DNA of 64,000 nt. Origin: Mycolicibacterium rufum (GTDB lineage: Bacteria > Actinomycetota > Actinomycetes > Mycobacteriales > Mycobacteriaceae). Below the pieces are notes generated by a model, which made no database searches, was not told the origin of the DNA, and worked only from the letters and a program-made list of their open reading frames with translations. A program made the translations under genes and the position numbers. Of this stretch, positions 17 through 20,403 are shown piece after piece. The DNA is taken from positions 1,736,001-1,800,000 of the forward strand of contig NZ_CP092427.2 in assembly GCF_022374875.2 (NCBI RefSeq), read 5' to 3'. The stretch's first letter is position 1. Each line of letters begins with the position of its first letter.

Positions 17-1411
17 TCACGTCAGTGGTTTGAATTTCTTCGGCTTGTCGGCGATGGAGTTGGCTTTCACCGTGCCGAGTAGCGCGTAGTGGTACTCGAT
101 TCCTTCTGGCGGTTCGAATGACGGCCCGGCCGGGCCTTGTGGCCACTCCGCATCGCCGGTCACCGTGCGGGCCGGGATCATCCAATAGTTGCCACCCCGG
201 TAGGCGCCTGCGGGGTCAGCGTCCGTGGGGAGCCGGAACTGGACTTCGACCCCGTCTTCGAGCGCGATCCACATGCCCTCCATCAGGGGAAGTGCACCGT
301 CGGCGGCGACGTTGACGCGGTTGGAGTCGTACAGGGTGGGTGACACGTGGTCCCACCGTCGCACCAGCGGATGGAGCTGCGGTCGCGAACCGGTGTCGTC
401 GGTTACCTCTTCGGTCAAGGTGATCGAGCGGTCCTCGTAGTCGATCGCCGCGATCTGATGCAGCGGCGACCACCAACGTGTCTCGGTGAGCGGGTGGTCG
501 TCGGCGATCCGGCTGGCAGCGGCGTCATCGGTGATCTCGACCCAGTCGCCGATCTCGAGTCCGAGCTTGTTGTCGCGGCCGAGCGAGGACAGCACCACCG
601 TGGCGCCCTTGACGGACCGGATCGGCAGCACCACCGAGCCGTTCTCCCGCGACCAGGTGAACGTGGCACCGCGCAAGCCATGGCCGTCGGGTTCGGCGTC
701 GGGGTTCCACGCCGGTCCCCCACTGTGCACCTCGACGCGGTACAACTGGTTCTCCGGTCCGCGGAACTTCGCCTCGGGCGGCAGATGGCAGGGGTCCTTG
801 TCGTAATCCAGCGGGCGCCGCGCCCTCGCGGCGAGAAGTCCTGCCGCCGGGTTGAATTCGGCGACCGCGGCATCGAACTGTTTGGCGCCGTCGGATCCGT
901 CACCGTCGAGCGGCAGCAGTCCCACCTGCCAGACGACCTTCGACCGCGCAGCGGTGTCTGGGCCCGGGTCGCCCAGGGCGATCTCACGGATCGCGGGGTC
1001 CTGCCATGCGGTGATCAGCCGTTCCCACACCCGCAGGTACACGGCGAACGGAACGGTGTCGGGGACCGCGTCGTCGGGGTTGTCCGGGTCGAGGTAGCCG
1101 TCGGGCTGCGTCGTGTACGTCACCTCGTTCTCGTTCTCGATCAGGATTCCGTCGACGTAGGCGCGCCCCGGTGAGATCGTCACGTCGGTGATCGTCGGGC
1201 CTGGTTTGACGGTGGCGATCTGGAAGCCGGCCGCGCCGTCGGGCACTGCGATGTGGCCGAGGAAGTCGGCCATCATGGTGCGCAGCTGGTACCGCAGGAT
1301 CGCGGAGGCCTCGTTGAGGTCTGCGTCCAGCGGCAGCCGGCCCTGCTGGTAGCGCACCGAGGTGAAGTGCCTGGCCCGGTCGAAGGTGTCACGGGTGATG
1401 TCGGCGTGCAT
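17..1411 (-). CDS. DUF6519-type protein of the contractile injection system
   Basis: 464 aa. It is the last gene of the CIS operon that is visible, 10 bp after the preceding stop. The N-terminus (MHADITRDTF, then a VRYQQGRLPLDADLNE stretch at about residues 19-34) matches what I recall of the DUF6519 family found in actinobacterial CIS loci and in phage-like gene sets. The rest is mostly predicted beta structure with no catalytic motif that I recognise. Its position after the baseplate genes suggests a baseplate accessory or exterior decoration protein. That role is inference. There is no signal peptide or membrane segment. Only 16 bases follow the stop, so whether the operon continues to the left cannot be judged. 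Confidence 0.75.
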   Translation of the reverse strand: MHADITRDTFDRARHFTSVRYQQGRLPLDADLNEASAILRYQLRTMMADFLGHIAVPDGAAGFQIATVKPGPTITDVTISPGRAYVDGILIENENEVTYTTQPDGYLDPDNPDDAVPDTVPFAVYLRVWERLITAWQDPAIREIALGDPGPDTAARSKVVWQVGLLPLDGDGSDGAKQFDAAVAEFNPAAGLLAARARRPLDYDKDPCHLPPEAKFRGPENQLYRVEVHSGGPAWNPDAEPDGHGLRGATFTWSRENGSVVLPIRSVKGATVVLSSLGRDNKLGLEIGDWVEITDDAAASRIADDHPLTETRWWSPLHQIAAIDYEDRSITLTEEVTDDTGSRPQLHPLVRRWDHVSPTLYDSNRVNVAADGALPLMEGMWIALEDGVEVQFRLPTDADPAGAYRGGNYWMIPARTVTGDAEWPQGPAGPSFEPPEGIEYHYALLGTVKANSIADKPKKFKPLT

Positions 1412-1421
1412 CGCTGTCCTC

Positions 1422-3548
1422 CTAGGTGGCGATCAGGATGCCGGCGTCGGCTCCTGCGGGTGTGTATTCGTCGAGGCGGGAACGAAGGTTGTCCTCGCGT
1501 TGCGGCTGGAACAGGTCGTGGAATGCGCCCATCTCGGAGCCGTCCTCAGCGCCGCGTCTGATCTCGTCGCGGCACCACAACGCGAGTTGCGCGTATCCGG
1601 GGCGACCGTAGCGGGTGCTGGTGAACCGCGGGATCACGTGTTGCGGGTCTTGGGAATGTGTTGGTTCACAATGAAACTGACCACCGACGCGGGAGTCCGG
1701 CGGCAGATAGCTGAACCGGATGCAGCCCCGCTGTCGGCGTGCGATGCGCACGTCGCCCATCAGGATGGAGTTCTCGACCAGATTCACCCCATGAGTCCGC
1801 ACGGCGCCGAACACGGTCACCCGTCGCGCGGACAGCACCGCGTGGGCGTGCCGGTCATCGGGCGCGGTGAGCGCGGCCAGTCCCCAGCCCGCGGAGTCGA
1901 GGATGGTGTCGGACAGCCACACCTGGTTCGGCTCGTTGTGCACTTCGTCCACGTCGACCAGGATCGTGCCGAGGATGCTGTGCTCCACCTGCAGGCATGC
2001 GGGCGTGTCGATGAGCTCTACGCTGGCTTCCTCGGAATGCTCGGGCTCGCAGTCGCAGTCCAGACTCCACCCGGGGACCAGTGTCGAATGACGGATCACG
2101 ACTGTGCCGACGTGGCCTTGCACGCGAACGCTGCGACCGGTGATGAGCAGCCCGTCGAGCACCACGGTCGGCCGCGCGTCGCTGTCGCACTCGTCCGGTC
2201 CGGTGATGCGCAGCGCGTCGGGCCGGTTGCTGTACCAGTCCAGCAGCCGGATCACCGGGCGCTTGCCCTGCGCGGCGCGCAGCGTGACGCGGTCACCGGC
2301 GTCGAGCTTGATCTCGATCTGTTCCTGATAGGCGCCACTGTCGGTCAGTTCGATCACCACGTCGCTCGGCGCGGGCGATGTGCCGTGTTTGTCGGTCTGC
2401 CACTGCTGGACGGCGGCCATGATGGTCGGGAACTGTGCACTCGGGCCGACGGTGTACTGCGCGACCCGTGGGGTGACCGGCCGCTGGTATTCGCCGCCGC
2501 CGAGGTCGTCGGAGAACCCGTAGTGGTAGGTGACCCAGACGCCGTCGGGTGTGTGCCGGCTGGGGAATGCGATACGGCCGAGCACCGGGTCGACGGCAAC
2601 CTGCCCACGCTGGGGCAAATAACGCCACTCCGAAAGATCGGCTGCGACAATCTGGTTGAGCGGCACCGGGGCGTCGGGACCGCGGTAGACGCATAAACTC
2701 TTGCCGGGCCCGTAATAGCGGGCCAGGTGCTCGGCGAAGCAGCGCCGCCGGATGAATGCGGGGACGTTCGACTCCTCGGCGATGTGCGTCGGCGTCGGTT
2801 CGGGCCGCGGCTTGGTGATCAGAGGTGCGTCGTTGCCGAGGATGCTGAACGTGAAGTGCGCGCGGGCCCGGTCCTCGCAGTACGCGGGAGCATAGGTGAC
2901 CGAGTAGGGACGGAGCCGCCAGACATACAGCCCGACCGCAGGGATATTGAATTTGCCTTGGCCGCGTGACGAGTTGATGCGCCGCACGTCGACGGTGTGC
3001 GCGAGTTCGTCGAACGGTCTCTCCACACGGTCGAGTGCATCGCCGAGACGGATGTCGACCAAGCTTCCGCGATGCAGGCGGCGGGCGTCGGCGCGGGGGT
3101 CGCGTCCGTAGAGCCGGATGGCGGGGGTGACGCACAGCAACCGCCGGAATTCGACGGCCCTGGCCGGCCATCCTGCCACGTCGAGCGCCAGCTCTTCGAG
3201 CAGCGCCAGCGTGCCCTTGCGGCGACGATTGGCCACGGTGTGCGTGACGTCGCGACGAGAAGCCATGGCCGACAACAACTCATGAGCCTCCGGCGAGGCA
3301 GCGGCCAGCGCCTCTTGGCCGCCAGGCAGCAGGTGATAACCCACCAAGTCGCCGAGGTAGGGCGCGACCCAGTCCTGGCAGGTTTCGATGAACCAGTCGT
3401 CGTAGAGCTGTTCGAGGTCGGCATCGATCAGGTCGGCCTGCTCGGTGATCACGGCCAGCAGCGCTCGCAGGGGCCCGCCGATCTCCTCGTCTCGGCGTTG
3501 ATGGACGCGCGGCAACAGGGTGAACAGCCGGTCGTGGGTCTCGGTCAT
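1422..3548 (-). CDS. phage tail protein I-like baseplate protein with C-terminal beta-helix
   Basis: 708 aa. The start was placed at the ATG at 3548 because it overlaps the upstream TGA as ATGA; an in-frame extension to 3686 would run inside the neighbour. Residues about 1-200 (MTETHDRLFTLLPRVHQRRD, then VAPYLGDLVGYHLL) resemble P2 gpI-like tail proteins that link the baseplate to fibres. Residues about 350-620 contain many short repeats rich in V/I/L and D/G (VVLDGLLITGR, VVIRHSTLVPG, LQVEHSILG). This pattern is typical of right-handed parallel beta-helices, as in receptor-binding tail spikes. The C-terminus (DLFQPQREDNLRSRLDEY) is a separate short domain. The likely role is a baseplate arm carrying a host- or surface-contacting helix. 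The family is reasonably sure, the binding function is inferred. Confidence 0.75.
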   Translation of the reverse strand: MTETHDRLFTLLPRVHQRRDEEIGGPLRALLAVITEQADLIDADLEQLYDDWFIETCQDWVAPYLGDLVGYHLLPGGQEALAAASPEAHELLSAMASRRDVTHTVANRRRKGTLALLEELALDVAGWPARAVEFRRLLCVTPAIRLYGRDPRADARRLHRGSLVDIRLGDALDRVERPFDELAHTVDVRRINSSRGQGKFNIPAVGLYVWRLRPYSVTYAPAYCEDRARAHFTFSILGNDAPLITKPRPEPTPTHIAEESNVPAFIRRRCFAEHLARYYGPGKSLCVYRGPDAPVPLNQIVAADLSEWRYLPQRGQVAVDPVLGRIAFPSRHTPDGVWVTYHYGFSDDLGGGEYQRPVTPRVAQYTVGPSAQFPTIMAAVQQWQTDKHGTSPAPSDVVIELTDSGAYQEQIEIKLDAGDRVTLRAAQGKRPVIRLLDWYSNRPDALRITGPDECDSDARPTVVLDGLLITGRSVRVQGHVGTVVIRHSTLVPGWSLDCDCEPEHSEEASVELIDTPACLQVEHSILGTILVDVDEVHNEPNQVWLSDTILDSAGWGLAALTAPDDRHAHAVLSARRVTVFGAVRTHGVNLVENSILMGDVRIARRQRGCIRFSYLPPDSRVGGQFHCEPTHSQDPQHVIPRFTSTRYGRPGYAQLALWCRDEIRRGAEDGSEMGAFHDLFQPQREDNLRSRLDEYTPAGADAGILIAT

Positions 3549-6500
3549 GGGATCCTCCGCAGCATCAGGGCCTCCGGGACGTCGGGCGACAGCACGACGA
3601 TCTGGGCGGGCCGGATCCCGCGGAAGATCGTGATCGGGGTGTACGCCTGGATCGGCGCATTGGCCAGGGTGGGGTTGAGCCGGCACAGTTCCTCGACCGT
3701 CAGGCCGGTGTGCAGCGCGGCCTCTGTGAGCGTCAGGGGCTCATCCCATGAGAAGACCTGACCTGGCTCGTATTTGGCAGGTTCGGCACGGACCACCCGA
3801 TCGGGGCCGCTGAGTTGGTTGGCGAGAGAAAGCAGTTCGAGTGGGGTGACGGAGGCAGGCACTCCGTGGAAGATGTCGATGTCGATATAGTCGACTCCGG
3901 GGACGGCCTGCGCGGCGGCGAACGCCTCGCTGAGGTAGGCGTCCTGCGCCAGGTCGCGGCGTGCGAAGGAGTAGGTGCCCGACAGGGCCGCCCGCACTGC
4001 GGGTTCGACGACGTCCCAGTTGTGGTCGGGCTTGACCTTGACACCCGCGCGCATCACGAGCAGCACCATGTCGCGCACGTCGACCCGGACGGTGACACCC
4101 GGGTCGCCGAACTCGGCGAGCGAGTCTTTCAGCGCGGTCAGCAGTCCCGAACCGGCATCGACAGGCGCGTCGCCGATGCTGGCGACAGTCACATGCACGA
4201 CATGTTGCCCGCCGTCGAAGAGCCTGCGAGCGCTGGCTTTTGCGATGCCCGCCCTGGCGCGGGTGTAGTCCTGGTAGTCACGCACCGACAGCAGCCGGTC
4301 GAGGGCGAGCATGCGCAGCGGCGTTACTGTGCGGGCATCGTCGGGGGTGTCGCCGTCTGTTCCGCCGGTGGCGGCGATGGGGTTGGTGACGGCGCTGACG
4401 CCGAGCGGTTGGCCGGCCAGCTGCGAGATCTGGCCCGCGATCGCGTTCCCGCCGCGGCCGGCGCCGACGCGCAGCGTCGCGGCGATGTTCTGGCTGCCGG
4501 TCGGGGGTCGGGCGCCGTGAACGCCGTCACCGAAGCCGATGTCGACGGACTTGTCGGCGGCGACGTCGGGCCGGTAGACGTGGTCGGTCGCCGCACTGGT
4601 CGCCAGGATCTCCGTGGGCCGCCACCGGACGCCTGAAACACTCACCCACAGTTCGTCGTCGAAGCCGGCGGGACTGGTCGCCGGCAGCGCGGTGAGGGGG
4701 TTGTCCTGGTTGACTTGGCGAATTCGGAATGACTGGTTGGGTTGGCCGGCATCCCCGTTGCCGAGGATCTCCGTGCGCGTTTCGCCTTGGGTGGCGGCAA
4801 CGACGTTGCCGTAGACGGTGACGCTGTCGCGGCGGTAGCGGTAGGCCAGCTCGCCGGTCAGTGTCAGGATGGTGCGGACCGAGGATGCCGCCTCGTCGGG
4901 ATCGACCCATTGGCGCACCCCGGCGACCATGGTGAGCTCGGCGGCTCGGATGCCACTGGTGTAGGGGACGTCGGTGCGTTCACCACTGACGATGACCCAG
5001 CGGCCGGGTGTCAGCCCGTCGTAGACGCGGCCCAGCTCGATGGTGTCGCCCGCGATGTCGTCGGTGATGAGATCGCCTACCGGCGTGAGGGATTCACCCT
5101 GGGCGTAGAGGGCGGATCCTTCGCCGGCGACGATCTTGGCGTCGAGAGTCAGTTCGGTGAACGGCACGTTGATCGGGCTTGCGGCCGCCGGAGCCACGTT
5201 GCGCGACGACTGGTTGACCGACTCGACCCGGCGCACCAGGTTCTTCGCGCCGACGACAACCCAGCTGCCCTTCTGGATGCCGTCGTAGACGGTGTCCAAT
5301 CGGACCGTATTCGTATCCGACCCTTCGGCGAGTGTCGCCTTGGTCCGCAGCACCTGCATGTCACTCAGTGCGGTTGGCGGGGTGAGCTGTTCGTTGTCCC
5401 ACGCCTGGTGCAGGGTCGGGGCGACCCGTGGATCGGCGGCGGCGAGCAGTTTGGCGTGGACGTCGGAGTCGGGCCGGAACAACGCCGCGGTCCCGGGGTC
5501 GATGTCACGCGCGTTGCGTGGAGCCCGAGACGGTGGGCGCCGCAGCCACGGCAGCATCGGGGTGAGTGCCACCAACGCCGCACCGTCATCGCAGTCCACG
5601 TTGTCGTAGATCGGGACGTGTCCCTCGCCGTCCGACGGGCAGAGGATGTCGTGGGCACGCCAGCGCAGCGCCTGGAGATCACCCGCCCGTCGTCCCAGGG
5701 CGGTTTCGGCGATTCGAACCGCATGCCGTGCCGCGCCGAGCATCGGGTCGGCATAGGTTCTGTACCACGCCACCACCGCCGGTGATTCGTGCACCGACGC
5801 CAGCGCGGCGGCTACGAGGAGGTGCTCGACCACCTGAGGCAGCGAGACCCCCGACCCTGCCCCGAGAACGTTGCGCAAGACGTCTTCGGCGGTGAGCGAC
5901 GGGCCATCGGCCAGCCGCTTGGACAGCGGTTCGAGGTAGGTGCTGAGGACGGTCTTCACAGATGCGGCACCGGCCGGGTGGTTTATCGCGTCGTTGGTAG
6001 TGCGCGCCAGAGCGAGCAGCGCCGTGCTCAATGGGGTTCGCGTCGATATCAGGGAGACGGCGGTGGTGTTCGCCTGGAAGTCGGGCTTGGACGCGCTGGC
6101 GATGCGCACCGCAGTGCCGAGGCGGGGGTCGAACCCGTCGGCCAGGGCGGCGGGGGGCGGTGCCGGGTCGAACAGGAAGAGCAGTCTGTCACCGGCTTTG
6201 AGGTTCGCGGCGGTGCCCGCGATGCGCAATTCGGGTATGTCGTTGACGTCGTCGGGTTCCTCACTGAGCTTCTGCCCGTAGTACGCGATCGATGGCGGCC
6301 CGGACATGATCGGCGCCAGGTTGTTCCATTCCTCGCGGGCGTGCAGGTCGTCCGATGTCTCGAACGTCGCCGGCAATTCGTTCTGCCGCGGCACGCTCTT
6401 GGCGCCCGCGCCGGCCGGTATCAGCGTCTTGGCGCCGGGGTCCAGCGTGTAGGCGAGGTACGTGTCGGCACCCAGCGCGGGGCGGGTGCGGTAGCCGACG

Positions 6501-6820
6501 AGCCGGCCGAGTTGGTTCAGCGAGCGTGGTTCGGTGGCGGTGCGCAGGTAGCCTTCGTTGGCGATGCGCTCCTGGTAGAAGGTCAGGATGTCGCCGAGGA
6601 TCGCGAAGCAGTCGAGCAGAGCGATGCTCGGATCGTCGGAATCGCGTGTCAGCAGACGGTTGAGCTCCTTCTGGGAGGACAACCGGGCCTGCATCGATTC
6701 GCGGAAGCTGCCGTGCGTCCCGATGCGGTACGCGATCGCGTCTCGTTGTGGCGGGTTGTACGTGTCGGTGGGGGTCGTGGCGTGCACCCCGTCGCAGCAT
6801 CCGCATGTGCAGCAGCTCAT
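3545..6820 (-). CDS. putative baseplate assembly protein (J/gp6-type), 1091 aa
   Basis: Large baseplate wedge protein, equivalent in place to Afp11/Afp12-type genes. The N-terminal third (DDPSIALLDCFAILGDILTF, YQERIANEGYLRTATE, LGRLVGYRTRPALGADTYLA) is the hallmark of putative baseplate assembly proteins that share the gpJ fold. The region about residues 760-960 (GFGDGVHGARPPTG and onward) is the conserved wedge core. The last about 80 residues (EALHTGLTVEELCRLNPTL-like segment) look like a LysM-type module. The N-terminus has an unusual cysteine cluster, CCTCGCC at residues 3-9, that could bind metal. It is coupled to both neighbours by 4-bp ATGA overlaps. No signal peptide is present. Confidence 0.85.
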   Translation of the reverse strand: MSCCTCGCCDGVHATTPTDTYNPPQRDAIAYRIGTHGSFRESMQARLSSQKELNRLLTRDSDDPSIALLDCFAILGDILTFYQERIANEGYLRTATEPRSLNQLGRLVGYRTRPALGADTYLAYTLDPGAKTLIPAGAGAKSVPRQNELPATFETSDDLHAREEWNNLAPIMSGPPSIAYYGQKLSEEPDDVNDIPELRIAGTAANLKAGDRLLFLFDPAPPPAALADGFDPRLGTAVRIASASKPDFQANTTAVSLISTRTPLSTALLALARTTNDAINHPAGAASVKTVLSTYLEPLSKRLADGPSLTAEDVLRNVLGAGSGVSLPQVVEHLLVAAALASVHESPAVVAWYRTYADPMLGAARHAVRIAETALGRRAGDLQALRWRAHDILCPSDGEGHVPIYDNVDCDDGAALVALTPMLPWLRRPPSRAPRNARDIDPGTAALFRPDSDVHAKLLAAADPRVAPTLHQAWDNEQLTPPTALSDMQVLRTKATLAEGSDTNTVRLDTVYDGIQKGSWVVVGAKNLVRRVESVNQSSRNVAPAAASPINVPFTELTLDAKIVAGEGSALYAQGESLTPVGDLITDDIAGDTIELGRVYDGLTPGRWVIVSGERTDVPYTSGIRAAELTMVAGVRQWVDPDEAASSVRTILTLTGELAYRYRRDSVTVYGNVVAATQGETRTEILGNGDAGQPNQSFRIRQVNQDNPLTALPATSPAGFDDELWVSVSGVRWRPTEILATSAATDHVYRPDVAADKSVDIGFGDGVHGARPPTGSQNIAATLRVGAGRGGNAIAGQISQLAGQPLGVSAVTNPIAATGGTDGDTPDDARTVTPLRMLALDRLLSVRDYQDYTRARAGIAKASARRLFDGGQHVVHVTVASIGDAPVDAGSGLLTALKDSLAEFGDPGVTVRVDVRDMVLLVMRAGVKVKPDHNWDVVEPAVRAALSGTYSFARRDLAQDAYLSEAFAAAQAVPGVDYIDIDIFHGVPASVTPLELLSLANQLSGPDRVVRAEPAKYEPGQVFSWDEPLTLTEAALHTGLTVEELCRLNPTLANAPIQAYTPITIFRGIRPAQIVVLSPDVPEALMLRRIP

Positions 6821-9570
6821 CGTCCACCTACCAGGGTGAGGTCGAGGCGCCCGTTCTCCGGCCGGGCCGGATCACTGTCGAGTTGAGCGACCTCCAGCGG
6901 TTTGATCGCCAGGACGCCGGTGTCGAGTGCGTCGCCGGGGGGCCCGAAAAGGCGTTCCAGCCTGGTGACGTCGACGCTGAGCACGCCGGGCACCGACGCC
7001 GCGGCCGCGACGATCGAGCTGACCCGGACGGGTGTGCCGAAGGTGAGGCGGTCGGCGTTGAAGTAGCCGTCGCGGCCCGCGCCGAGGGTGCGCATCAACG
7101 CCGCGCGGACATGGCCCGCGATGTGCTCGGGTTTGACCTGGACGCACAGCGCCAGGTCGAGTGGCACGAGCACTGCACTGGACACCGAAAGGTCATGGCC
7201 GATCTTGCGGTAGCGGTGCATCGAGCTCCGCACATCGTCCAGCAGCCAGTCGGGGGCGACCGGCGCACCGAGTGCGTCGATGGCGATCTGGGCCTCGTAC
7301 CAGCTGCCGGTCCAGGCGAGGTTCGCCGTGGCCCGCTGCAACCCGGGTTGGCGAGCGGCGAGGTCGGCGTAGTCGCCGGCGGTGATGGCGCGCAGCTGCC
7401 GCAGCCTCGCCTCGTGCGGAGCCTGGATTCGGGCTGCGGCAACATCTTCCGGGTCCACGCCTCCTGCACCGGGCAGCGGGTTTCGCACTCTGCTGATCGT
7501 CGCGCCGTGGGTGTCGGCGATGATGATCTTGTCGATGGCCTCGGCGCCGACGTTTCCGGCGGTGCCGTTGCCGACCCGGTAGCGCGCCACCGAGTGGTCT
7601 TGCGCTGTCCCGTCGAGCAGCTCGAATTGCGCGCCGTTGCGCCCGTCGCCGAATCGCAGATGCACGCGGCCGTCGTCGTCGGTCTCTCCGACGAAGTGGC
7701 GGTCATCGGGACCGCTGTCGAGCAGATCGCGTCGAGCGTGCCAGGTTTCGTTGAATCGGTCGATCACGGTGACCGCGGGCAGCGCGTCGCGTGGGTCGGT
7801 GTCGGTTGCGATCGCGGCGGGGCCAAAGAATCGCGGATCGGCCGGATCGGCTTCGGCGGCGTCGACGCCCCAGCTCTGCGCCACTTCCCAGCCCTCCTCG
7901 TCGGCGGTCAGGACGCATCCACTGCGGGCCTGTCCGATCAGCTCTTCGAGGCGTTCGAGTTTGGCGATCAGCAGCTCGTCGAAGCGCCGCAGCAAGGTAC
8001 GGAGCGCACGGTGAGGGTGCTGCGCCAGCCGCACTTTGGTCAGTGTGGGTTCGCCGAACAACACGGTCAGATACTCGGTGTCGCTCTTCTCCAGCGGTTC
8101 TTCCGGCATCTTGCGGTACAGGGTGCGCACGTGTTCTCGCGCCCGCGCAGGGAGGTCTCGTAGCCAGTCCGCCTGGGCGCGGGTGGTGACGCCGAGGGAC
8201 GGGAAGGGGACGCTGTTGGTGACCGGAAGCCGGCTGATCGCCGGCTGGAATCGCTTGGGGATCGGCGGATAGCGAGTGGTACGCGGTGGTGCGGTCGTGT
8301 CGTGGCAGCCGAAGCAGACCGGCTCCGGGCATCCCGGGTCGACGGGGTCGGCCACGGGCACCTCCAGCGGTTCGTCGGGAACGCCGCCGCCGTGTTCGAC
8401 CAGGACCACATTGCCGCGGCCAACGCCGACGACGAGATCGGTGCACTCACGCCCGCCGCGGCTGTTGACGCACAGCGGGAATCGCAGCGCGTCGTCGCGC
8501 GCCCAGGTCACCTCGAGTACAGGCTGCTCGCGCAGAGGGTCGACGGCCGGTGTGACCGACGTCAATCGCACCGCCTGCCGATGGGTGATGTCGCGGTCGG
8601 CTTCGTTTCCGGTTTTCGGGCCGATGATCTCTTCGAGGATCAGCACGTCGCCGGGCCTCAGCTGCAGCACCCGGTCTTTGCCTGGTTCGCCGTCGACGAG
8701 TGTTGCCGCGGTCGTGCCGATCGGCAGACAGCAATCGTGGTCCTCCCACGTCCACAGGTCGACCCTGTTGTGGCCGGCGCGCAGTGAAAGGTCCTGGTAG
8801 ACCAGCGGTTCGAAGATCTGCGTGCCGCTGGCGAACTGCACCGTTCCAGCTTTGAGCTCGACGTCGCCGGAGACTTCGACGCAGACCCACGCGCGGGCCG
8901 CGCAGCCGTCGTGCAGCGTGTAGTCCACCAGCCGGGTGTGGCGGCGCACCGAGGTCCGCAGCCGCGCGGTCTCGAGGTACGCCTCGGTCGCGACCGCGTC
9001 CTGCTGGTAGCTGAGCCGATCGCCTTCATACGCGAGCAGCTCGACCAGGGTGATGCCGATATCGGGGATGTGGCGTTCGGTCCACTGAGGCATCGTCAGG
9101 CTCAGCCGGTCCAGCATCAGTTGCCGGAAGCTGGCGTAATCTTTGGCCAGGTAGTCGATCTCGACCGGTGGGAAAGACTCGTCGGGGCAGTCACATTGCG
9201 GTGCGCAGTCGATATCGTCGCACCCGGTGACGAAGGTGAAATCGAGGCAGCGATAACGCGGGTCGAACCCTTCGACGTCGACGACGCACAGCCGGTAGGT
9301 GGACAGGTCGCCGGCGCGGTCGACAGTCACGCGAACACAGTGCTCGAGTTCCGGATCCTTGCTCGGGCAGGGCGCCACCGACGTCACTTCGATGCCGGTG
9401 ATTCGCCGGCCACCTTCGATGCGAAAGTTGGCTGGGCGCAGGCCGCCGGGCACATCGCCGAAGAAGACCACCGAGAGCTCGGTGCGGTCGGAGCCGACGC
9501 TCACCGCGTCGATACCGTTGTACCCCCTGTCGCGTGCCATGTTGCGGCGCCGCTCGTCGGTACATGTCAT
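6817..9570 (-). CDS. putative baseplate assembly protein (J/gp6-type), 917 aa
   Basis: Second large wedge protein, paralogous in design to the gene just downstream. The start at 9570 was chosen because that ATG overlaps the gp25 gene's stop. After a divergent N-terminal domain of about 120 residues comes the conserved block EIDYLAKDYASFRQLMLDRL, then DIGITLVELLAYEGDRLSYQ and AYLETARLRTSVRRHTRLVD. A late block (RFGDGRNGAQ) is shared with J-type baseplate proteins. Cysteines cluster at about residues 110-125 (CDDIDCAPQCDCPDE) and in the middle (CPEPVCFGCHD), which suggests metal-stabilised loops. Together with the 1091-aa gene it should form the wedge of the CIS baseplate. The annotation of family is firm, the division of labour is not. 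Confidence 0.85.
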   Translation of the reverse strand: MTCTDERRRNMARDRGYNGIDAVSVGSDRTELSVVFFGDVPGGLRPANFRIEGGRRITGIEVTSVAPCPSKDPELEHCVRVTVDRAGDLSTYRLCVVDVEGFDPRYRCLDFTFVTGCDDIDCAPQCDCPDESFPPVEIDYLAKDYASFRQLMLDRLSLTMPQWTERHIPDIGITLVELLAYEGDRLSYQQDAVATEAYLETARLRTSVRRHTRLVDYTLHDGCAARAWVCVEVSGDVELKAGTVQFASGTQIFEPLVYQDLSLRAGHNRVDLWTWEDHDCCLPIGTTAATLVDGEPGKDRVLQLRPGDVLILEEIIGPKTGNEADRDITHRQAVRLTSVTPAVDPLREQPVLEVTWARDDALRFPLCVNSRGGRECTDLVVGVGRGNVVLVEHGGGVPDEPLEVPVADPVDPGCPEPVCFGCHDTTAPPRTTRYPPIPKRFQPAISRLPVTNSVPFPSLGVTTRAQADWLRDLPARAREHVRTLYRKMPEEPLEKSDTEYLTVLFGEPTLTKVRLAQHPHRALRTLLRRFDELLIAKLERLEELIGQARSGCVLTADEEGWEVAQSWGVDAAEADPADPRFFGPAAIATDTDPRDALPAVTVIDRFNETWHARRDLLDSGPDDRHFVGETDDDGRVHLRFGDGRNGAQFELLDGTAQDHSVARYRVGNGTAGNVGAEAIDKIIIADTHGATISRVRNPLPGAGGVDPEDVAAARIQAPHEARLRQLRAITAGDYADLAARQPGLQRATANLAWTGSWYEAQIAIDALGAPVAPDWLLDDVRSSMHRYRKIGHDLSVSSAVLVPLDLALCVQVKPEHIAGHVRAALMRTLGAGRDGYFNADRLTFGTPVRVSSIVAAAASVPGVLSVDVTRLERLFGPPGDALDTGVLAIKPLEVAQLDSDPARPENGRLDLTLVGGR

Positions 9571-9926: not shown

Positions 9927-9931
9927 GACGG

Positions 9932-10261: not shown

Positions 10262-10272
10262 CCTGCACTCCC

Positions 10273-12232: not shown

Positions 12233-12242
12233 CTCTGGGTCC

Positions 12243-13150: not shown

Positions 13151-15219
13151 GCACCGACCGTGCTCAACGCGAACTCCCGATCGCGAATGGGAAGCTCGAG
13201 CTTCTCGAATTCCATTCGTGCCGCGGTCAGTACGTTCGCCATCGTGATTCGTCCGTCGGCCGCGGCGGCGAGGAACGCCGCGTTCACCGCGATGTTGCGG
13301 GCCATGCCGCCACTGACCGGCAGCTGCGCGAGGCGGTCGAAATCGAGATCTGCGACGGGGGCATCGCTGGGGAACGACTTCACCCAGATCTGGCGGCGTT
13401 GGCCGACGTCGGGAAAGGTGAACTCGACGACGAACCGGAGCCTGCGCAGGAACGCGGGATCCAGCGCGCCGCGCATGTTGGTCGCGAGGATCGCCAGGCC
13501 GTGATAGGCCTCCATGCGCTGCAGCAGGTAATTGATCTCGATGTTGGCGTAACGATCGTGGGCGTCCTTGACCTGGCTCCGCTTGCCGAATATGGAATCG
13601 GCTTCGTCGAACAGCAGGATCGCGCCGCCGCTTTCCCCCGCGTCGAAGAGCTTGCGCAGGTTCTTCTCCGTTTCGCCGATGTACTTGCTGACCACCGCTG
13701 ACAGGTCGATGCGGTAGAGGTCGAGTTTCAGGCGCGAGGCCAGCACCTCGGCGGCCATGGTCTTGCCGGTGCCGCTGGGTCCGGCGAACAGCACGCTGAC
13801 CCCCAGGCCGCGGTTGATGCGCCGGCCGAAGCCCCAGTCGTCGTAGACGGTCGTGCGGTGAGACACCTGGGCGGCGACGCGTTCGAGCAGTGTCCGCGCG
13901 GCCTCGGGCAACACGATGTCGTCCCAGTCGACGCGAGGTTCCAGGCGCCGTGCTAGCGCGTCAAGGCGGGGGCGGGTCCGCGCCCGGCATTCGTGCCACG
14001 CGTCTGCGGAATCGTCTGACATCGAGGCGATTTCGGCGATGTCGCAGATCTGCAGCGCGAACTGGGCCGACAGCGCGTCGATGGCACCCATGTCGGTGCC
14101 CTCGGCCAGCGAGGCCTGCCAGGCTTCGGCGCGCTCGGTCGCCGACGGTGCCTCGACGTCGAGGACGACCGACCCCCGGCCGACGTCGGACCAGCTTTCG
14201 CGCACCGCCAGTGCGCACTGGCCGCCGATGCGAGTCAGGAATCTGCTGATCGGTGTGCGGGCGGCGGCGTTCTCGTCGTCGATGTCTTCGGCGTCGATGT
14301 ACAGCGCCACCGGCAGCAGTGCGCTCTCGCGTTCCCACAGCCGCGCCAAGTTGTCCAGATCGGTGGGTTGGGTCGGGATGAGGTCCGCGGGAAGGCGGTA
14401 TGCCAGCAGTCCGCATCGGCGTGCGGCGTGCGCCGCGACGAGTCGTTTGCCGGCCGGATCGAGGCCGGCGAGTTGAACCGTCGGGGTGCCGGTCGGCCCG
14501 AGTGTCCACTCCCGTTCGATGCGCTGCGCCAGCACCTGCTGTGAGTCCGGAAGCTGCGCTGCCGCCGAGGAATCGAGGCTCGTCACCACCGGCGAGAGCC
14601 GGTCGTCGAGGTCGTTGAGGCCCTTGACGTAGTTGACGATTCGTTCGTCGGCCCGTAGCGCCGCCGATATCAGTCCCTCCCCGGACCGTTGGGTGATCTC
14701 GACGAGCTTCCAGTACCGCAGGCCGCCGCGTGGCGCCACGGCGTCCCACGCGGGGTCGGGAAGCATCTCGAGGGCGAGTCCGAACGTGGGGTACCGCATG
14801 TGGTCGTTTCCATGTGCTCGTGCGCAGAGATCGGCGACGGACGGATCGAGGTCCAGCGCGGCGCACAGCAACAGAATGTCGCGCTCGAACCGGGACAGAC
14901 CCAGCCGTGCGGCGAGCTCGACCAGAGCCGGTGGCGGTGTGCATTGTTCGGTGTGCGCGACCCTGGCGGCGGCGTTCGCGATCTCGTCGTCAGAGATGCT
15001 CGCCCGCACCGGCAGGGCGAGTTGGGGTGATTCGTGCTCGTCGCGTCCGAAGAGGCGGCCCATTCTCCCGCCGCGGTGCGGGATGGCGGAGGGGCTCGGC
15101 GGCTGCTCGGCCGGATCGCGACGCCGCTGCAGGAGCAACCGCAGCCACGCCAACGAGGCAGCGAGGAAATCGCCGTTGGCAGCCTCCCATTCGGCGGCTC
15201 CGAGCGCCGGTCGCGTCAT
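13147..15219 (-). CDS. AAA+ ATPase of the contractile injection system (Afp15-like)
   Basis: 690 aa. The C-terminal AAA+ module has a Walker A GPSGTGKT at residues 480-487, Walker B ILLFDEAD around 534-541, a sensor-1 Asn at 581 and arginines near 592-594. An upstream part about 240-400 looks like a second, degenerate AAA domain, with GLDPAGKR at 252-259 in place of a P-loop. This tandem arrangement is usual for CIS ATPases. The N-terminal about 110 residues are specific to the group. These ATPases are conserved across CIS operons and are thought to aid assembly. Both gene ends overlap neighbours by 4 bp. Confidence 0.92.
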   Translation of the reverse strand: MTRPALGAAEWEAANGDFLAASLAWLRLLLQRRRDPAEQPPSPSAIPHRGGRMGRLFGRDEHESPQLALPVRASISDDEIANAAARVAHTEQCTPPPALVELAARLGLSRFERDILLLCAALDLDPSVADLCARAHGNDHMRYPTFGLALEMLPDPAWDAVAPRGGLRYWKLVEITQRSGEGLISAALRADERIVNYVKGLNDLDDRLSPVVTSLDSSAAAQLPDSQQVLAQRIEREWTLGPTGTPTVQLAGLDPAGKRLVAAHAARRCGLLAYRLPADLIPTQPTDLDNLARLWERESALLPVALYIDAEDIDDENAAARTPISRFLTRIGGQCALAVRESWSDVGRGSVVLDVEAPSATERAEAWQASLAEGTDMGAIDALSAQFALQICDIAEIASMSDDSADAWHECRARTRPRLDALARRLEPRVDWDDIVLPEAARTLLERVAAQVSHRTTVYDDWGFGRRINRGLGVSVLFAGPSGTGKTMAAEVLASRLKLDLYRIDLSAVVSKYIGETEKNLRKLFDAGESGGAILLFDEADSIFGKRSQVKDAHDRYANIEINYLLQRMEAYHGLAILATNMRGALDPAFLRRLRFVVEFTFPDVGQRRQIWVKSFPSDAPVADLDFDRLAQLPVSGGMARNIAVNAAFLAAAADGRITMANVLTAARMEFEKLELPIRDREFALSTVGA

Positions 15220-16454
15220 GACGTCACCGTCACGGTCTGCGTGTCGTCGAAGCGCGGTGTCGGCTGCGAGCGGTCAACCAACAGGCTGTCGATACCCGCT
15301 ACCCGCAAGCGCACCACGTGCTTGCCCACCGGTGCGTCGGGAACGGTGAACGACAGAGCGCCACCGGTGACCGGATTGCCCGCGATCATGCGGTCCTCGG
15401 GGATCGCCCTGCCCCCGAGGATGAGGAACGCCTGCTGGCCGGCGATCACGGGGGGCGCGCAGGCCAGTGTGATGTCGACCTCGCCCTGCGCGTTCCGGGC
15501 GACGGTGATCGGCATCGCACTGGTGATGCGCGGAGCGACAGCGAGCGGTACGGCATTCGTGACGGTCGTGATGTCCTGCCCGTCGACGGTGTTCGTCAGC
15601 GCCACGCTGGCCGACCAGAGTCCGGCGGGCGCGGCGGCCGGCACCTCGACGGTGACCGTGTCGGCGGTCGCGGCTGTGGACGTCAGCGTCTCCGGATCGG
15701 GCAGCAACGGGTGGGTCAGGGTGGCGGCAGCGGTGTGCGCCGAGAGGTTGATGCCCCGCAGGTCTACGGACTCGCCGGGGCGGGCCGCCGTCTGGCCGAG
15801 CATGGGGACTGCGGCCTCGAGCTCCGGGAACGGTGAGGCGGTGTCGGCCCGCGCGGTGGGTCCTTCGTCGTTGTCGCCTCGTCGGATCACCGGGACCGGG
15901 GTTCGGGGGGGCCGGCGGCTGTCGATGAGGATCACCCGGACTTCGAACGCGGCCGACAGCCGGTAGGGCGTCTGAAACGCCGACCACAGCGAGTAGATGT
16001 CGTTCTCGGCCAACGGTTGCCAGGTGATGCGGATACCGTCGAGTTGGGTGGAGACGTTGCTGAAGGCGGCCGAGTCGTGCAGTTGAGTGTGGCTGAGCTG
16101 GCTTTGTTCGTGCACCGCGCGCGATGCCAGACCGAGTAGCCGGTGCGCGTCGAGGTCCTTGCCGCCCTGCACATAGGGGGTGATCAGGTAGTGCAACGCG
16201 AGCGGAAGCGGCGGTTGTGCGCTTTCACCGGGTGCGATGTCGAGTGGGTCTTCGTTGCGCAGTGCCGCGGCGATTTCCGTGCGGTACAGGAACAGGTTGA
16301 CCTGCAACGCCTCGATGTCGGTCTGCACCTCGTGAGGCGGCTGTGCAATGACTTTCACGCCACCGGGAAAGGCCTGTGGCCCCGTGTTGACGGCGTCGTC
16401 GATCACCTGGAGCAGGGTCTGGGTCACTCCTTCGATCGCGCGCGCGTCGCTCAT
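15216..16454 (-). CDS. Pvc16/DUF4255 family protein with C-terminal Ig-like domains
   Basis: 412 aa. The N-terminal about 190 residues (AIEGVTQTLLQVIDDAV, VQVNLFLYRTEIAAALRN-like, LALHYLITPY, LLGLASRAVHEQSQLSH) match the DUF4255/Pvc16 family, which caps the distal end of the sheath-tube (Afp16-type terminator). The remainder (PGESVDLRGINL, then repeated V/T-rich strands) looks like one or two IPT/TIG-like beta-sandwich domains, an extension not present in short Pvc16 proteins. In this fusion the cap could carry an exposed domain. It precedes the ATPase gene with ATGA overlap. Confidence 0.85.
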   Translation of the reverse strand: MSDARAIEGVTQTLLQVIDDAVNTGPQAFPGGVKVIAQPPHEVQTDIEALQVNLFLYRTEIAAALRNEDPLDIAPGESAQPPLPLALHYLITPYVQGGKDLDAHRLLGLASRAVHEQSQLSHTQLHDSAAFSNVSTQLDGIRITWQPLAENDIYSLWSAFQTPYRLSAAFEVRVILIDSRRPPRTPVPVIRRGDNDEGPTARADTASPFPELEAAVPMLGQTAARPGESVDLRGINLSAHTAAATLTHPLLPDPETLTSTAATADTVTVEVPAAAPAGLWSASVALTNTVDGQDITTVTNAVPLAVAPRITSAMPITVARNAQGEVDITLACAPPVIAGQQAFLILGGRAIPEDRMIAGNPVTGGALSFTVPDAPVGKHVVRLRVAGIDSLLVDRSQPTPRFDDTQTVTVTS

Positions 16455-16460
16455 CGCCGA

Positions 16461-17153
16461 TCAGCCCTCTCGGCTCTTCAGGTAGTCGTCGAGCGTCAGT
16501 TGCGGCCGCCGTTGTGTGGTCGCGTGCCGAGCCGGATTCGGTGGCGATGGCGCCGCCATGATCTCCACCCGCCCGATGCTGATGTGGACGTCGGGTTCGC
16601 TTGCGGGATCACGCGAGGCGACGACGTTGCGCTCGAACACGCTGGTGCGGTGGGAAGACCGCTGGATGACGACCGCCGGCGCGGGTCGTCGGTCCGGGAG
16701 CGCCGCCGGCGGCGCGGACGGCGGCACCTCGGGAGACGGTGGCACCGCTACCCGGTGCGGGGGCTCCGGATCCATTCGGCTCCGCGCTTCGGTCGCTGCG
16801 TGCCCCGCTCGGTGGCGCGCGACGGCCGCCGACGGTGCGCGCACGGGATCGGACCGTACCTGTTGCGTTGGAAAGCGCGGTGATTCGGCGCGGCTATGCT
16901 CCGGTGCGGGCGCCCGCTGTCCCCCCTGCGCGGGCGGCGTGACCGTCTCCGTCGGCGGCGCGGGTTGCGGCGCGGCGAGTCCCACGATCAATGCGAGGTC
17001 GGTGTCATGCCCGCGCTCCGACGAGGTGGTGAAGGTTCCCAGCGGCAGCGATTCGCTGTTGCCACGGTGCGAGGGCTCGAACAGCGACGGCAGTAGCGGG
17101 CGGATCGGCGGGAGCGCTGGTCGGCCGAGCAATCTGTCGACGAAGTCGCTCAT
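16461..17153 (-). CDS. proline-rich CIS-operon protein of unknown function
   Basis: 230 aa, start at ATG 17153 overlapping the zinc-ribbon gene's TGA. Residues 1-30 (MSDFVDRLLGRPALPPIRPL) could be an amphipathic anchor. Residues about 70-160 are rich in Pro, Ala and Arg and look disordered. The C-terminal part holds VHISIGRVEIMA, a short motif that I have seen in similarly placed proteins of CIS and tailocin operons. It ends with a charged helix (LTLDDYLKSREG). It is far too short and too disordered to be a conventional tape measure. A linker or assembly scaffold is possible; the function is unknown. Confidence 0.65.
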   Translation of the reverse strand: MSDFVDRLLGRPALPPIRPLLPSLFEPSHRGNSESLPLGTFTTSSERGHDTDLALIVGLAAPQPAPPTETVTPPAQGGQRAPAPEHSRAESPRFPTQQVRSDPVRAPSAAVARHRAGHAATEARSRMDPEPPHRVAVPPSPEVPPSAPPAALPDRRPAPAVVIQRSSHRTSVFERNVVASRDPASEPDVHISIGRVEIMAAPSPPNPARHATTQRRPQLTLDDYLKSREG

Positions 17154-17851
17154 GGTGTCGCCATCTCGAGATATCGGCGGCGACGCGCGGGGCTGACAGC
17201 CAACACGTCGTTCTCCGACCAGCCGTAGACCATGGCCAGTTCGTGTACGTCGTGGAGGATGCGGACGGCCTCGGCGTTGACCTCCGACCACAGGTAGCCC
17301 GCGATGTCGAAGGGGGCATTCCATCGGTGATCACAGACGGCGCAGTCGGCTTCGACGTGAATGTCAGCTTGAGGGTCCAGCGCGGCCAAGGCCGCGGACA
17401 TCTGGTCGAGGACGGATTCCGGCAGGCTCTGCGTGTCGTCGGGCAGGCTGGTGGTGACGCACCGTGCGATGAGGTCGCGGCGTGCGGCGCGCGACGACCC
17501 AGCGATCGCGAGTAGATCGCGCGAGGTGATGGCGCGGAACTCGATCTTTATGTCGCCCAGATGTACTGCCTCCCGGTCATCGTCGACGTCCTCGACCGCA
17601 AGGTCGGCGATGCTCAGTTCCATCTCCAATTCCGTTCCACAGGAGGGACAGTCGACCAGGCACGCCAGTGTCGGACCGAAGCATTCCTGTCGCAGCGCCA
17701 GCAGGTGGCGATCGCGAGCCCCGATGGTCAGGTCCGCGACGTCGGCCTGCTGCGCGCCGGCCGCGGCGAGTGCAAGCGTTCGCAGCAGCGGTGGCCGATC
17801 CGCCGCCGCCTCCCACAGCGCGAGGATCCGCGCTTCGCTGGTCGCGGACAC
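17150..17851 (-). CDS. zinc-ribbon baseplate-type protein
   Basis: 233 aa, GTG start at 17851. Two CxxC pairs, CPSC at residues 68-71 and CAVC at 170-173, could join into one split zinc ribbon. Two further cysteines at 57 and 64 lie nearby. The sequence between them (LAVEDVDDDREAVHLGDIKI) is acidic. The C-terminus (VHELAMVYGWSENDVLAVSP, ARRRRYLEMA) is a conserved helical ending that I associate with T4-gp12-adjacent baseplate proteins of CIS loci. It lies between tube and proline-rich genes, which suggests an early assembly role. Naming as baseplate protein is context-based. Confidence 0.7.
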   Translation of the reverse strand: MSATSEARILALWEAAADRPPLLRTLALAAAGAQQADVADLTIGARDRHLLALRQECFGPTLACLVDCPSCGTELEMELSIADLAVEDVDDDREAVHLGDIKIEFRAITSRDLLAIAGSSRAARRDLIARCVTTSLPDDTQSLPESVLDQMSAALAALDPQADIHVEADCAVCDHRWNAPFDIAGYLWSEVNAEAVRILHDVHELAMVYGWSENDVLAVSPARRRRYLEMATP

Positions 17852-17854
17852 GGG

Positions 17855-18379: not shown

Positions 18380-18396
18380 GGCCTGACTCCTTTCCC

Positions 18397-19986
18397 CTAG
18401 ACCTGGATCTGGCCGGCGAGCTGCTGGATGCGGATGACGACGAACTCAGCCGGCTTCAGCGGTGCGAAACCGACGAGAATGTTGACGATCCCGCGGTCGA
18501 TGTCGTTCTGCGGGTTGTTCGTGGCGTCGCACTTGACGAGGTAGGCGTCGGCCGGGGTACGGCCCTGAAAGGCGCCCTGCCGGAAGAGGGTGTTCATGAA
18601 CGCGCCGACATTGAGTCGGATGGACGACCACAGAGGTTCGTCGTTGGGTTCGAACACCACCCACTGGGTCCCCCGGTACAGAGTCTCCTCGATGAACAGT
18701 GCGAGCCGACGCACCGGTATGTACTTCCACTGGTCGGCCAGCTGATCCGCGCCCCGCCGGGTGCGCGCGCCCCATACCACGTTGCCGATCACGCCGAGCT
18801 CACGTAAACAATTGAGGCCGAGCGGGTTCAACCGGCCGTTCTCCAGGTCCGTCATCTTGACCGTCGTTCCCGTGACTCCGCTGAGCGACGCATCGGTTCC
18901 GGCGGGAGCCTTCCAGACCCCGCGGGCGACATCAGTACGAGCCCACACGCCGGCTACGGCGCCGCATGCCGCGAACTCGCGAATGAGCCCGTTCTGCCCC
19001 GGTGCCGGATCGGGTGCCTTGATGCGGGGGAAGTACATCGCGGCATTACGCGCATCGGTACCGCTGAGGGTGAAGTTGGCCTGCCCCAATGGCGTAGCGG
19101 CACTGGCGACGGTGGTCCAATTCGTGGGTGAGTCGGCGATGAGCATCGCGCGCCGGTCGACGCACAGCTTCAGCGCAGCCGTGATGACTCCTGTGGTGTC
19201 GTTACCGGCGAAACCGGGCAGGCACAGCATGTTGAAGATGTCGGTCTTCAGCAGTTGGTACATGCCGGTCTTGCCGAGGACGTCACCGAGATAGTCGGCG
19301 GAGGTGGGCGGGGCGCCGGCGGTGCCGCTGTTGTCTGTCGCCTTGGTATAGCGGTTCGGCTTCGCGTCGTCGAAGGGATCGGGCAGGTTGTCGGCCGGGT
19401 TGATCGCCTCGTGCGGTGTCGGCAGGTTGTTGTCGCCGCTCTTCACGCGGATAAGCCCAGAATTCGCCAGCAGATTCGCGAGCCCGCTGGCACTGGCCGG
19501 ATCCTTGCTGACGTTGAGATAACTTTCGGTGGCCCCGCTGCCGGTGTCGCGCACCGCAAGGTTGTAGCTGTTGGCGGCGTCAGCCGGATTGGCCTCCACC
19601 CGGACGCGCAGCTTGTTGCCCCATGCGCCGGGGGAGGCGGCCTGCAAGACCACGTTGCCCGCGTTGCCCGGCACGCTGATCTCGGCAGGTTTGGCGTTCT
19701 TGGTGTCGTCGTTGTCGCCGGTGTGTACCACCCGTACGACCTCGGCTTCGCTGCCGCCGTTCTGATAGAAGTGGTAGACCGCGTAGCTCAGGTCGCTGCC
19801 AGGGACGAGCCCCCCGAACTCGGCCTGGTAATCGGCGAAGCTGGTGAGGTGCACCGGGTCGCCCACCGCACCGCGGGGTGCGGTCCCGACGAAAGCAGCG
19901 ATCGAGGTCGGCACACCCACGATGGTGCGGACCGCGCTCGGTAGTTCATCGATGTAGACACCGGGAAACGTTGGAGTGACGGGCAT
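18397..19986 (-). CDS. contractile tail sheath protein
   Basis: 529 aa. The N-terminus (PTFPGVYIDELPSAVRTIVG, then VPTSIAAFVGTAPRG) and the C-terminal domain (WKYIPVRRLALFIEETLYRG, FMNTLFRQGAFQGRTPADAY, NDIDRGIVNILVGFAPLKPA, EFVVIRIQQLAGQ) are classic for contractile phage-tail and CIS sheaths. The C-terminal block holds the strands that link neighbouring subunits by handshake. A variable central domain (about 110-260) decorates the outside. A strong AAAGGAGA ribosome binding site lies 9 bases before the ATG. This is the first structural gene of the operon. Confidence 0.96.
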   Translation of the reverse strand: MPVTPTFPGVYIDELPSAVRTIVGVPTSIAAFVGTAPRGAVGDPVHLTSFADYQAEFGGLVPGSDLSYAVYHFYQNGGSEAEVVRVVHTGDNDDTKNAKPAEISVPGNAGNVVLQAASPGAWGNKLRVRVEANPADAANSYNLAVRDTGSGATESYLNVSKDPASASGLANLLANSGLIRVKSGDNNLPTPHEAINPADNLPDPFDDAKPNRYTKATDNSGTAGAPPTSADYLGDVLGKTGMYQLLKTDIFNMLCLPGFAGNDTTGVITAALKLCVDRRAMLIADSPTNWTTVASAATPLGQANFTLSGTDARNAAMYFPRIKAPDPAPGQNGLIREFAACGAVAGVWARTDVARGVWKAPAGTDASLSGVTGTTVKMTDLENGRLNPLGLNCLRELGVIGNVVWGARTRRGADQLADQWKYIPVRRLALFIEETLYRGTQWVVFEPNDEPLWSSIRLNVGAFMNTLFRQGAFQGRTPADAYLVKCDATNNPQNDIDRGIVNILVGFAPLKPAEFVVIRIQQLAGQIQV

Positions 19987-20019
19987 TGCAGTGTCTCCTT
20001 TGGCCGGATCGGCGGGTGA

Positions 20020-20403
20020 TCATGGCCGCACCGCGGCGGCCCGGAGTGCGTGTAGCAGGCTGTCGAGCGATGGCGGGCCGAGTTCGGTTCGGTACGGCCG
20101 CAGTTCCCACGAGGCGCTGCGCCGGCCGTCGTCGAGCACGGCGATCACCGCACAACCCCGGTCCGCGCTCAGGAGTTCAGGGTGCACGCTCAGTACCGCC
20201 TCGTCGTCCATCAGCCACACAACGACGTCGGGGTGCGCCCGGCGGATCGCGGCGGTGAGGGAGTCGACGCCGTCGAATGTCATGTCACCGACCACCGCGA
20301 CATCGCGGAGGTCTGTGATGCTGGTTCGGATCAGCTCACCTAGAATTCCGCGACACGACACCAGCGCGACCTTGGTCGGGCGGTCGTCGATCGTCGTGGG
20401 CAT
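20020..20403 (-). CDS. stand-alone pseudo-receiver protein preceding the CIS sheath gene
   Basis: 127 aa, ATG at 20403. The sequence TKVALVSCRGILGELIRTSI, then VAVVGDMTFDGVDSL and AHPDVVVWLMDDEA follows the alternating strands of a response-regulator receiver. The acidic pair of the phosphorylation pocket is replaced by Ser-Cys near residue 17. No DNA-binding domain follows. The end of the protein (ASWELRPYRTELGPPSLDSL) is not receiver-like. It lies 33 bp upstream of the sheath gene on the same strand, and 105 bp after the LuxR-type gene. It may sense or sequester a partner. Low similarity prevents a firmer call. Confidence 0.6.
   Translation of the reverse strand: MPTTIDDRPTKVALVSCRGILGELIRTSITDLRDVAVVGDMTFDGVDSLTAAIRRAHPDVVVWLMDDEAVLSVHPELLSADRGCAVIAVLDDGRRSASWELRPYRTELGPPSLDSLLHALRAAAVRP

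What the first reader, a model, noticed from the sequence alone, without database searches (positions are those of the whole stretch)
17..20403. Dedicated contractile injection system operon in a mycobacterium
Seventeen co-directional genes, mostly overlapping, encode sheath, tube, cap, AAA+ ATPase, tube initiator, hub, spike, PAAR-like tip, gp25 and wedge proteins, with no capsid, packaging, integrase or lysis gene. Such systems are known from Streptomyces, where they act from the cytoplasm in cell death and development, and from insect-associated bacteria. In mycobacteria they are rarely discussed. It may be a mycobacterial cell-death or inter-organism device.
Basis: partly seen in the sequence, partly recalled or inferred. 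Interest (0 to 1): 0.85.

Follow-up and report, generated by a model that had tools for sequence, protein, structure and literature searches.

The report
Fibre-bearing injection machine in a mycobacterium
A mycobacterium carries what looks like a complete set of genes for a phage-tail-like syringe, with a likely target-binding fibre and, just outside the stretch first read, a likely cargo protein built like enzymes that chemically alter bases in DNA or RNA; such syringes are a known kind, but little is known of them in mycobacteria.

The parts
20509..21186 (-). LuxR-type (GerE) response regulator upstream of the operon
   Evidence: PF00196 E 9.4e-16; homologues in the same place in G109 (61%) and G054 (41%)
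20020..20403 (-). Short receiver-like protein, first gene of the block
   Evidence: No Pfam hit; conserved in place in G109 (57%) and G054 (37%); name by my reading
18397..19986 (-). Sheath
   Evidence: PF17482, PF04984; near full-length match to 8bky, 265 bits
17855..18379 (-). Inner tube
   Evidence: PF06841 E 9.4e-39; CIS tube chains in the PDB
17150..17851 (-). T4 gp26-like baseplate protein
   Evidence: PF12322 E 2e-9
16461..17153 (-). Proline-rich protein of unknown role (230 aa)
   Evidence: No Pfam family; 39% in G109, not found in G054 or G045
15216..16454 (-). Cap protein (Pvc16)
   Evidence: PF14065 E 3e-35
13147..15219 (-). AAA+ ATPase (Pvc15-like) with winged-helix domain
   Evidence: PF00004, PF22977; Pvc15 equivalence by position
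12875..13150 (-). Small protein (91 aa), unknown
   Evidence: No family; 51% in G109
12243..12875 (-). Afp7-like tube-initiator candidate
   Evidence: Weak profile match to 9rce_H, E 0.019; position; 84% in G109
11909..12232 (-). LysM-like baseplate protein
   Evidence: phrog_7145 baseplate wedge E 8.1e-5; no Pfam hit; LysM by my reading
10788..11909 (-). Hub (VgrG/gpD-like)
   Evidence: Profile match to VgrG chain 9rce_F E 1.9e-6
10273..10791 (-). Spike (base V OB domain)
   Evidence: PF04717 E 5.9e-10
9932..10261 (-). PAAR-like tip
   Evidence: PF05488 E 0.001, under its cut-off; 73% in G109
9567..9935 (-). gp25 wedge
   Evidence: PF04965 E 8.6e-19
6817..9570 (-). Baseplate protein 1 (J-like)
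   Evidence: TIGR02243 E 2.8e-104; 9gtp baseplate J chain E 1.6e-10
3545..6820 (-). Baseplate protein 2 (J-like)
   Evidence: TIGR02243 E 4.9e-75
1422..3548 (-). Tail_P2_I / Mu gp48-like adaptor with a C-terminal beta-helix
   Evidence: Mu gp48 family in 9 of 31 aligned sequences (not in the own one), best E 0.0021; model (mean pLDDT 64) matches beta-helix proteins, best Foldseek E 3.3e-3
17..1411 (-). DUF6519 protein, tail-fibre candidate (eBAP5)
   Evidence: PF20129 E 6.5e-73; eBAP5 tail-fibre domain per PMC12923769
1..20 (-). First bases of the cargo gene (GTG start overlapping the DUF6519 stop); 951 aa, continues left of the window as L002:16965-19820:-
   Evidence: eCIS_core PF13699 E 1.7e-30; deaminase-like domain

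Best explanation
It is an eCIS-type contractile injection system with its own cargo. Probably under a LuxR-type regulator, the cell makes a phage-tail-like particle (sheath, one recognised tube protein, baseplate of two J-like proteins and gp25, hub, spike and tip, cap); the Pvc15-like AAA+ ATPase loads DUF4157-tagged proteins; a DUF6519 fibre mounted on the P2_I-like adaptor recognises a target surface; contraction then injects cargo, the best understood being a deaminase-like protein that would damage or rewrite the target's nucleic acid. Shown by sequence: the parts and their order, no phage portal or terminase match in the genome, the overlapping cargo gene and its conserved catalytic motif. 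Inferred: regulation, loading, release from the cell, fibre function, target, and that the deaminase is active on nucleic acid.
Confidence: 0.6

Rival explanations
1. A cytoplasmic, self-acting device as in Streptomyces: particles fire inside the producer under stress and release cargo that kills or reprograms the cell.
For: Streptomyces CIS do this (PMC10066040, PMC12237407; passages); the best-scoring solved sheath is 8bky; no lysis or release gene recognised; a DUF6519 relative with an FHA domain; no immunity gene recognised for the deaminase.
Against: The sheath is outside the clade of the Streptomyces-like mycobacterial sheaths; a proposed fibre gene is present, which those papers report missing in Streptomyces; no clear membrane-spanning adaptor by hydropathy in the operon.
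Confidence: 0.25
2. A largely inactive relic, or a structure used for something other than toxin delivery.
For: Patchy occurrence in the genus (21 of 297 genomes with any sheath match; 6 of 294 with DUF6519 above cut-off); four genomes with a sheath gene standing alone suggest that decay or reuse occurs.
Against: All 17 structural reading frames are open with tight junctions; catalytic residues of the cargo are kept.
Confidence: 0.1
3. The tail module of a prophage.
For: Sheath and tube are homologous to phage tail proteins.
Against: No portal or TerL match in the genome, the only capsid match 1.6 Mb away, the nearest integrase match over 0.8 Mb away; no head or packaging family among 10 flank proteins scanned, 5 from each side; Pvc16, AAA+ and eCIS_core genes present; the top phage sheath match is 26% identical.
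Confidence: 0.03

Closest known systems
eCIS with DUF6519 (eBAP5) fibres in Actinobacteriota (PMC12923769; passages and sections 7, 8 read)
   Same: DUF6519 gene directly downstream of a P2_I-type adaptor and J-like baseplate genes; DUF4157 marker
   Different: Here in a mycobacterium; the DUF6519 protein is short, and a likely beta-helix sits on the adaptor
EAT11 of Amycolatopsis nigrescens (PMC8213781; passages read)
   Same: DUF4157 at the N-terminus plus a deaminase; eCIS-associated; reported toxic to E. coli and yeast. A. nigrescens also has an adaptor 57% identical to the one here
   Different: No A. nigrescens name among the 47 proteins found for the deaminase region (most without an organism name), so whether the two deaminases are homologous is untested
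Cytoplasmic CIS of Streptomyces coelicolor / S. lividans
   Same: Sheath and baseplate J related; a DUF4157-type partner (Sle2) in S. lividans; a deaminase-like effector is known from Micromonospora eburnea in a related system (PMC13277306; abstract, section 10, passages)
   Different: Different sheath clade, one recognised tube protein instead of two, a fibre gene present, cargo at the 3' end instead of upstream of the sheath
CIS locus Mjls_0922-0939 of Mycobacterium sp. JLS (PMC4122934, 2014 table; passages read)
   Same: A CIS locus in the same genus, already catalogued
   Different: Not compared here; its type and cargo are not given in the passages I read
BURPS668_1122-type deaminase toxins (PF14424) and DddB (9k3e)
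   Same: HAE + CxxC motif, deaminase fold
   Different: Own sequence below the Pfam cut-off; an internal domain followed by about 450 further residues with two CxxCH motifs (my reading)

Membership tests
eCIS (Afp/PVC-like contractile injection system) | Sheath, tube, gp25, baseplate J, spike, AAA+ ATPase, Pvc16 cap in one operon | tested here: met
eCIS (Afp/PVC-like contractile injection system) | eCIS_core (DUF4157) cargo genes next to the operon | tested here: met
   three genes, all at the 3' end
eCIS (Afp/PVC-like contractile injection system) | No capsid, terminase, portal or integrase linked to it | tested here: met
   one Pfam family for each; other families of capsid, terminase or portal not searched genome-wide
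eCIS (Afp/PVC-like contractile injection system) | Tail fibre gene | tested here: met
   PF20129, taken as a fibre on the authority of PMC12923769; function not shown
eCIS (Afp/PVC-like contractile injection system) | Tape measure (Afp14) | tested here: inconclusive
   No family hit; the 230-aa proline-rich protein is unassigned. A typical one is also reported missing in Streptomyces
eCIS (Afp/PVC-like contractile injection system) | Particle released and able to inject | not testable with these tools
   needs microscopy and assays
Streptomyces-type cytoplasmic CIS (subtype IId) | Sheath inside the Streptomyces-type clade | tested here: not met
   265 bits to 8bky against 614 for L016; L016 and seven other mycobacterial rows separate from the window's with 100/100 support in a 49-row tree, in which no S. 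coelicolor sequence was included
Streptomyces-type cytoplasmic CIS (subtype IId) | No tail fibre | tested here: not met
   DUF6519 gene present, if it is a fibre
Streptomyces-type cytoplasmic CIS (subtype IId) | CisA-like membrane adaptor | tested here: inconclusive
   Hydropathy only, no homology search with CisA
Prophage tail module | Linked head and packaging genes | tested here: not met
Bacterial toxin deaminase (PF14424-like) | HxE and PCxxC zinc motif | tested here: met
   HAE and both Cys in 43 of 43, Pro in 35 of 43; 43 of the 47 found were aligned
Bacterial toxin deaminase (PF14424-like) | Cytidine-deaminase fold | tested here: met
Bacterial toxin deaminase (PF14424-like) | Pfam curated cut-off | tested here: not met
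   18.2 bits against 29.6 for the own domain; so I call it deaminase-fold, not a PF14424 member
Bacterial toxin deaminase (PF14424-like) | Activity on DNA or RNA | not testable with these tools
   needs an assay

The most novel reading that the evidence does not exclude
Some mycobacteria release a fibre-targeted contractile particle that injects a DNA- or RNA-editing deaminase into other cells, so that competitors (or protists or fungi) are mutated or killed. The machine is shared between mycobacterial lineages while the cargo is exchanged, which would make it a reloadable weapon in a genus otherwise known for type VII secretion.
Probability: 0.3. Interest if true: 0.75.

Novelty: new member of a known kind. 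Interest (0 to 1): 0.5.

Why it matters
Ideas about CIS in Gram-positive bacteria rest largely on Streptomyces, where the particles are reported to act inside the producer. This locus is of a different sheath lineage, with a proposed fibre and a likely nucleic-acid deaminase as cargo. It makes testable whether actinobacterial CIS also act outward, and points to a deaminase-like effector family (47 database proteins, its own included; the only organism named among them is Bradyrhizobium) whose member here falls below the Pfam cut-off.

Tried and rejected
Prophage reading: rejected. Streptomyces-type membership: rejected on the sheath and the fibre gene. The eCIS_core search in the genus gave 90 of 294 genomes; 74 of these have only a weak match of about 21-27 bits, and one of the 74 (G170) is among the 21 sheath-positive genomes; I take these for the RipC-neighbour protein of PMC12067865 (inferred, not tested), not eCIS cargo. 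Sequence searches of the PDB with the 951-aa protein and with the deaminase alignment found no deaminase; plain Foldseek gave no match under E 0.001. A promoter/terminator scan of 19900-21700 found nothing. Rfam gave nothing in the window at gathering score. Plasmid searches with 20 kb of each of the two smaller contigs did not name the strain: mostly actinobacterial plasmids, many of them mycobacterial, none covering 80% of the query. Trees: the sheath tree groups the window with an Amycolatopsis sheath and G109 with two Nocardia, while the adaptor tree groups the window with G109; I did not resolve whether the sheath was swapped or evolves fast. Rows left out: G066's lone sheath was dropped from alignment A1 because that stretch held stops in the frame given; A2 used 43 of the 47 proteins found; A3 used 30 of the 120 listed relatives plus the own protein; A4 used 11 of the 43.

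Full report
Setting. The window is bases 1736001-1800000 of contig 1 of a 6.1-Mb genome with three contigs. The genus is Mycobacterium in the broad sense: G109, listed as same genus, carries a sheath identical to one named Mycobacterium sp. 852013-50091. The species and its habitat are not known.

The operon. Seventeen structural genes run from 19986 to 17 on the minus strand, with a receiver-like gene at 20020-20403 and a LuxR-type regulator at 20509-21186 ahead of them. Ten of 16 junctions overlap by 1 or 4 bp with the starts chosen (one depends on a GTG start); six are gaps of 3-17 bp. Family hits name the sheath, tube, gp26-like protein, Pvc16 cap, AAA+ ATPase, spike, gp25, two TIGR02243 baseplate proteins and DUF6519; the hub matches a VgrG chain, and one baseplate protein matches chain 9gtp_1K, of an entry that also holds the 8bky sheath sequence. 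The PAAR-like protein is under its Pfam cut-off; the LysM-like and tube-initiator genes are named mainly by order.

Beyond the edge. By reading, the 40 kb to the left show none; PHROGs on 10 flank proteins, five from each side, gave no head or packaging family. Genome-wide, the families searched gave no portal match, no TerL match, one capsid match at C1:3404261 and eight integrase matches, the nearest at C1:899074. What lies to the left is cargo: a 951-aa gene whose GTG overlaps the TGA of the DUF6519 gene, then a 756-aa gene on the same strand and a 456-aa gene on the other, all with eCIS_core at E 6.2e-27 or better. These are the only eCIS_core matches in the genome. Next come nitrile hydratase genes.

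The fibre question. PMC12923769 (passages and sections 7 and 8) proposes DUF6519 as a fibre-attachment domain (eBAP5), correlated with Actinobacteriota and paired with P2_I-type adaptors. Both genes are here. In other mycobacteria the DUF6519 protein is 467 (G109), 578 (G045), 1052 (G054) and 1200 aa (G142); the last three carry an FHA or a beta-helix domain in their C-terminal part, while G109's and the one here, 464 aa, have no other family above cut-off. The adaptor's C-terminal half looks like a beta-helix, on a weak model (mean pLDDT 64). The adaptor is conserved over its length in the 31 sequences aligned, so this part is more likely structural than a fast-changing receptor binder.

Which lineage. 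The best solved relative of the sheath is 8bky at 265 bits; the paper on the S. coelicolor system mentions this entry (term count). Another mycobacterial sheath (G153) scores 614 bits; it and seven further mycobacterial rows, not scored singly, form a clade apart with full support. So Mycobacterium holds at least two CIS lineages, and this one is not the Streptomyces type.

Distribution. Any sheath match: 21 of 297 sampled genus genomes. DUF6519: 7 of 294, 6 above cut-off. Strong eCIS_core (E below 1e-20): 16 of 294, all among the 21 sheath-positive ones. G109 has the whole operon in order, tube 91%, hub 90%, adaptor 81%, sheath 61%, but only the core domain of the cargo in common; its cargo includes a YkuD-domain protein, and G045's an Ntox16-domain protein. 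In the sheath tree the window joins an Amycolatopsis row (100/100), G109 two Nocardia rows (99/95) and G054 a Microbacterium row (100/96); G045, G252 and G142 are long branches of unsure place. This suggests more than one acquisition.

Site. The operon sits between genes I read as sigD (next to an RsdA anti-sigma gene) and groEL1. In the nine same-genus relatives with both genes on one contig (of 12 examined), the interval is 3.3, 4.3, 6.4, 6.8, 8.3, 9.1, 16.4, 21.6 and 33.0 kb; here it is 37.2 kb (computed). Alignment to G011, G004 and G009 shows shared sequence ending at window coordinate -9984 to -9220 on the left, and beginning at 23032 (G004) or 24033 (G011) on the right; the G009 stretch fetched stops short of groEL1. 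None of the three has a sheath match. It is a variable site, and the accessory block here spans about 32 kb.

Known or new. The 2014 survey PMC4122934 (passages) already lists Mycobacterium sp. JLS genes Mjls_0922-0939. PMC8213781 (passages) reports EAT11, a DUF4157-deaminase toxic to E. coli and yeast. PMC13277306 (abstract, section 10, passages) reports a deaminase-like effector with immunity from Micromonospora. PMC10066040, PMC12237407, PMC12998442, PMC11297309, PMC12067865, PMC12113844 and PMC9230969 were seen as passages; PMC12210884 and PMC10598620 held none of the terms asked. The listings showed no study of a mycobacterial CIS at work; the library lacks most subscription journals.

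Verdict. A real, fibre-type eCIS operon with likely deaminase cargo: a new member of a known kind. Outward injection is my best reading at 0.6; a self-acting device at 0.25.

Noticed in passing
G141:C16, G273:C1, G128:C1, G066:C4 (loci L009, L010, L011, L008): Sheath-like genes standing alone: tblastn with the other window CIS genes found none in the stretches fetched around them. In G141, G273 and G128 a neighbouring gene is 94-97% identical between the three; it reads like a GAPDH (my reading).
   Followed up: partly
L002:10678-12598:+ (window coordinates about -9122 to -7202): Nitrile hydratase beta and alpha genes and a third gene with a just sub-threshold beta-subunit match, directly beside the cargo genes.
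   Followed up: no
genus-wide: 74 genomes have only a weak eCIS_core hit, in most cases in an open frame of about 270-340 codons; probably the RipC-neighbour protein that PMC12067865 links to eCIS, though only one of the 74 genomes has a sheath match.
   Followed up: partly
window 14170-14243 and 56857-56945: ARAGORN tRNA calls that lie within reading frames (the first within the AAA+ ATPase gene); probably false positives.
   Followed up: no
window 17855-19986 against G109: Adjacent sheath (61%) and tube (91%) have very different identities to the same relative; sheath and adaptor trees disagree.
   Followed up: partly
L131:7451-9187:+ (G045): DUF6519 protein with a C-terminal FHA domain, E 1.1e-17; in my knowledge an intracellular type of binding domain, on a proposed tail fibre.
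   Followed up: no
L150/L151 (G004): The same sigD-groEL1 interval in G004 is 33 kb and reads as if it holds a recombinase and phage-like genes (my reading), so the site may take up different elements.
   Followed up: no
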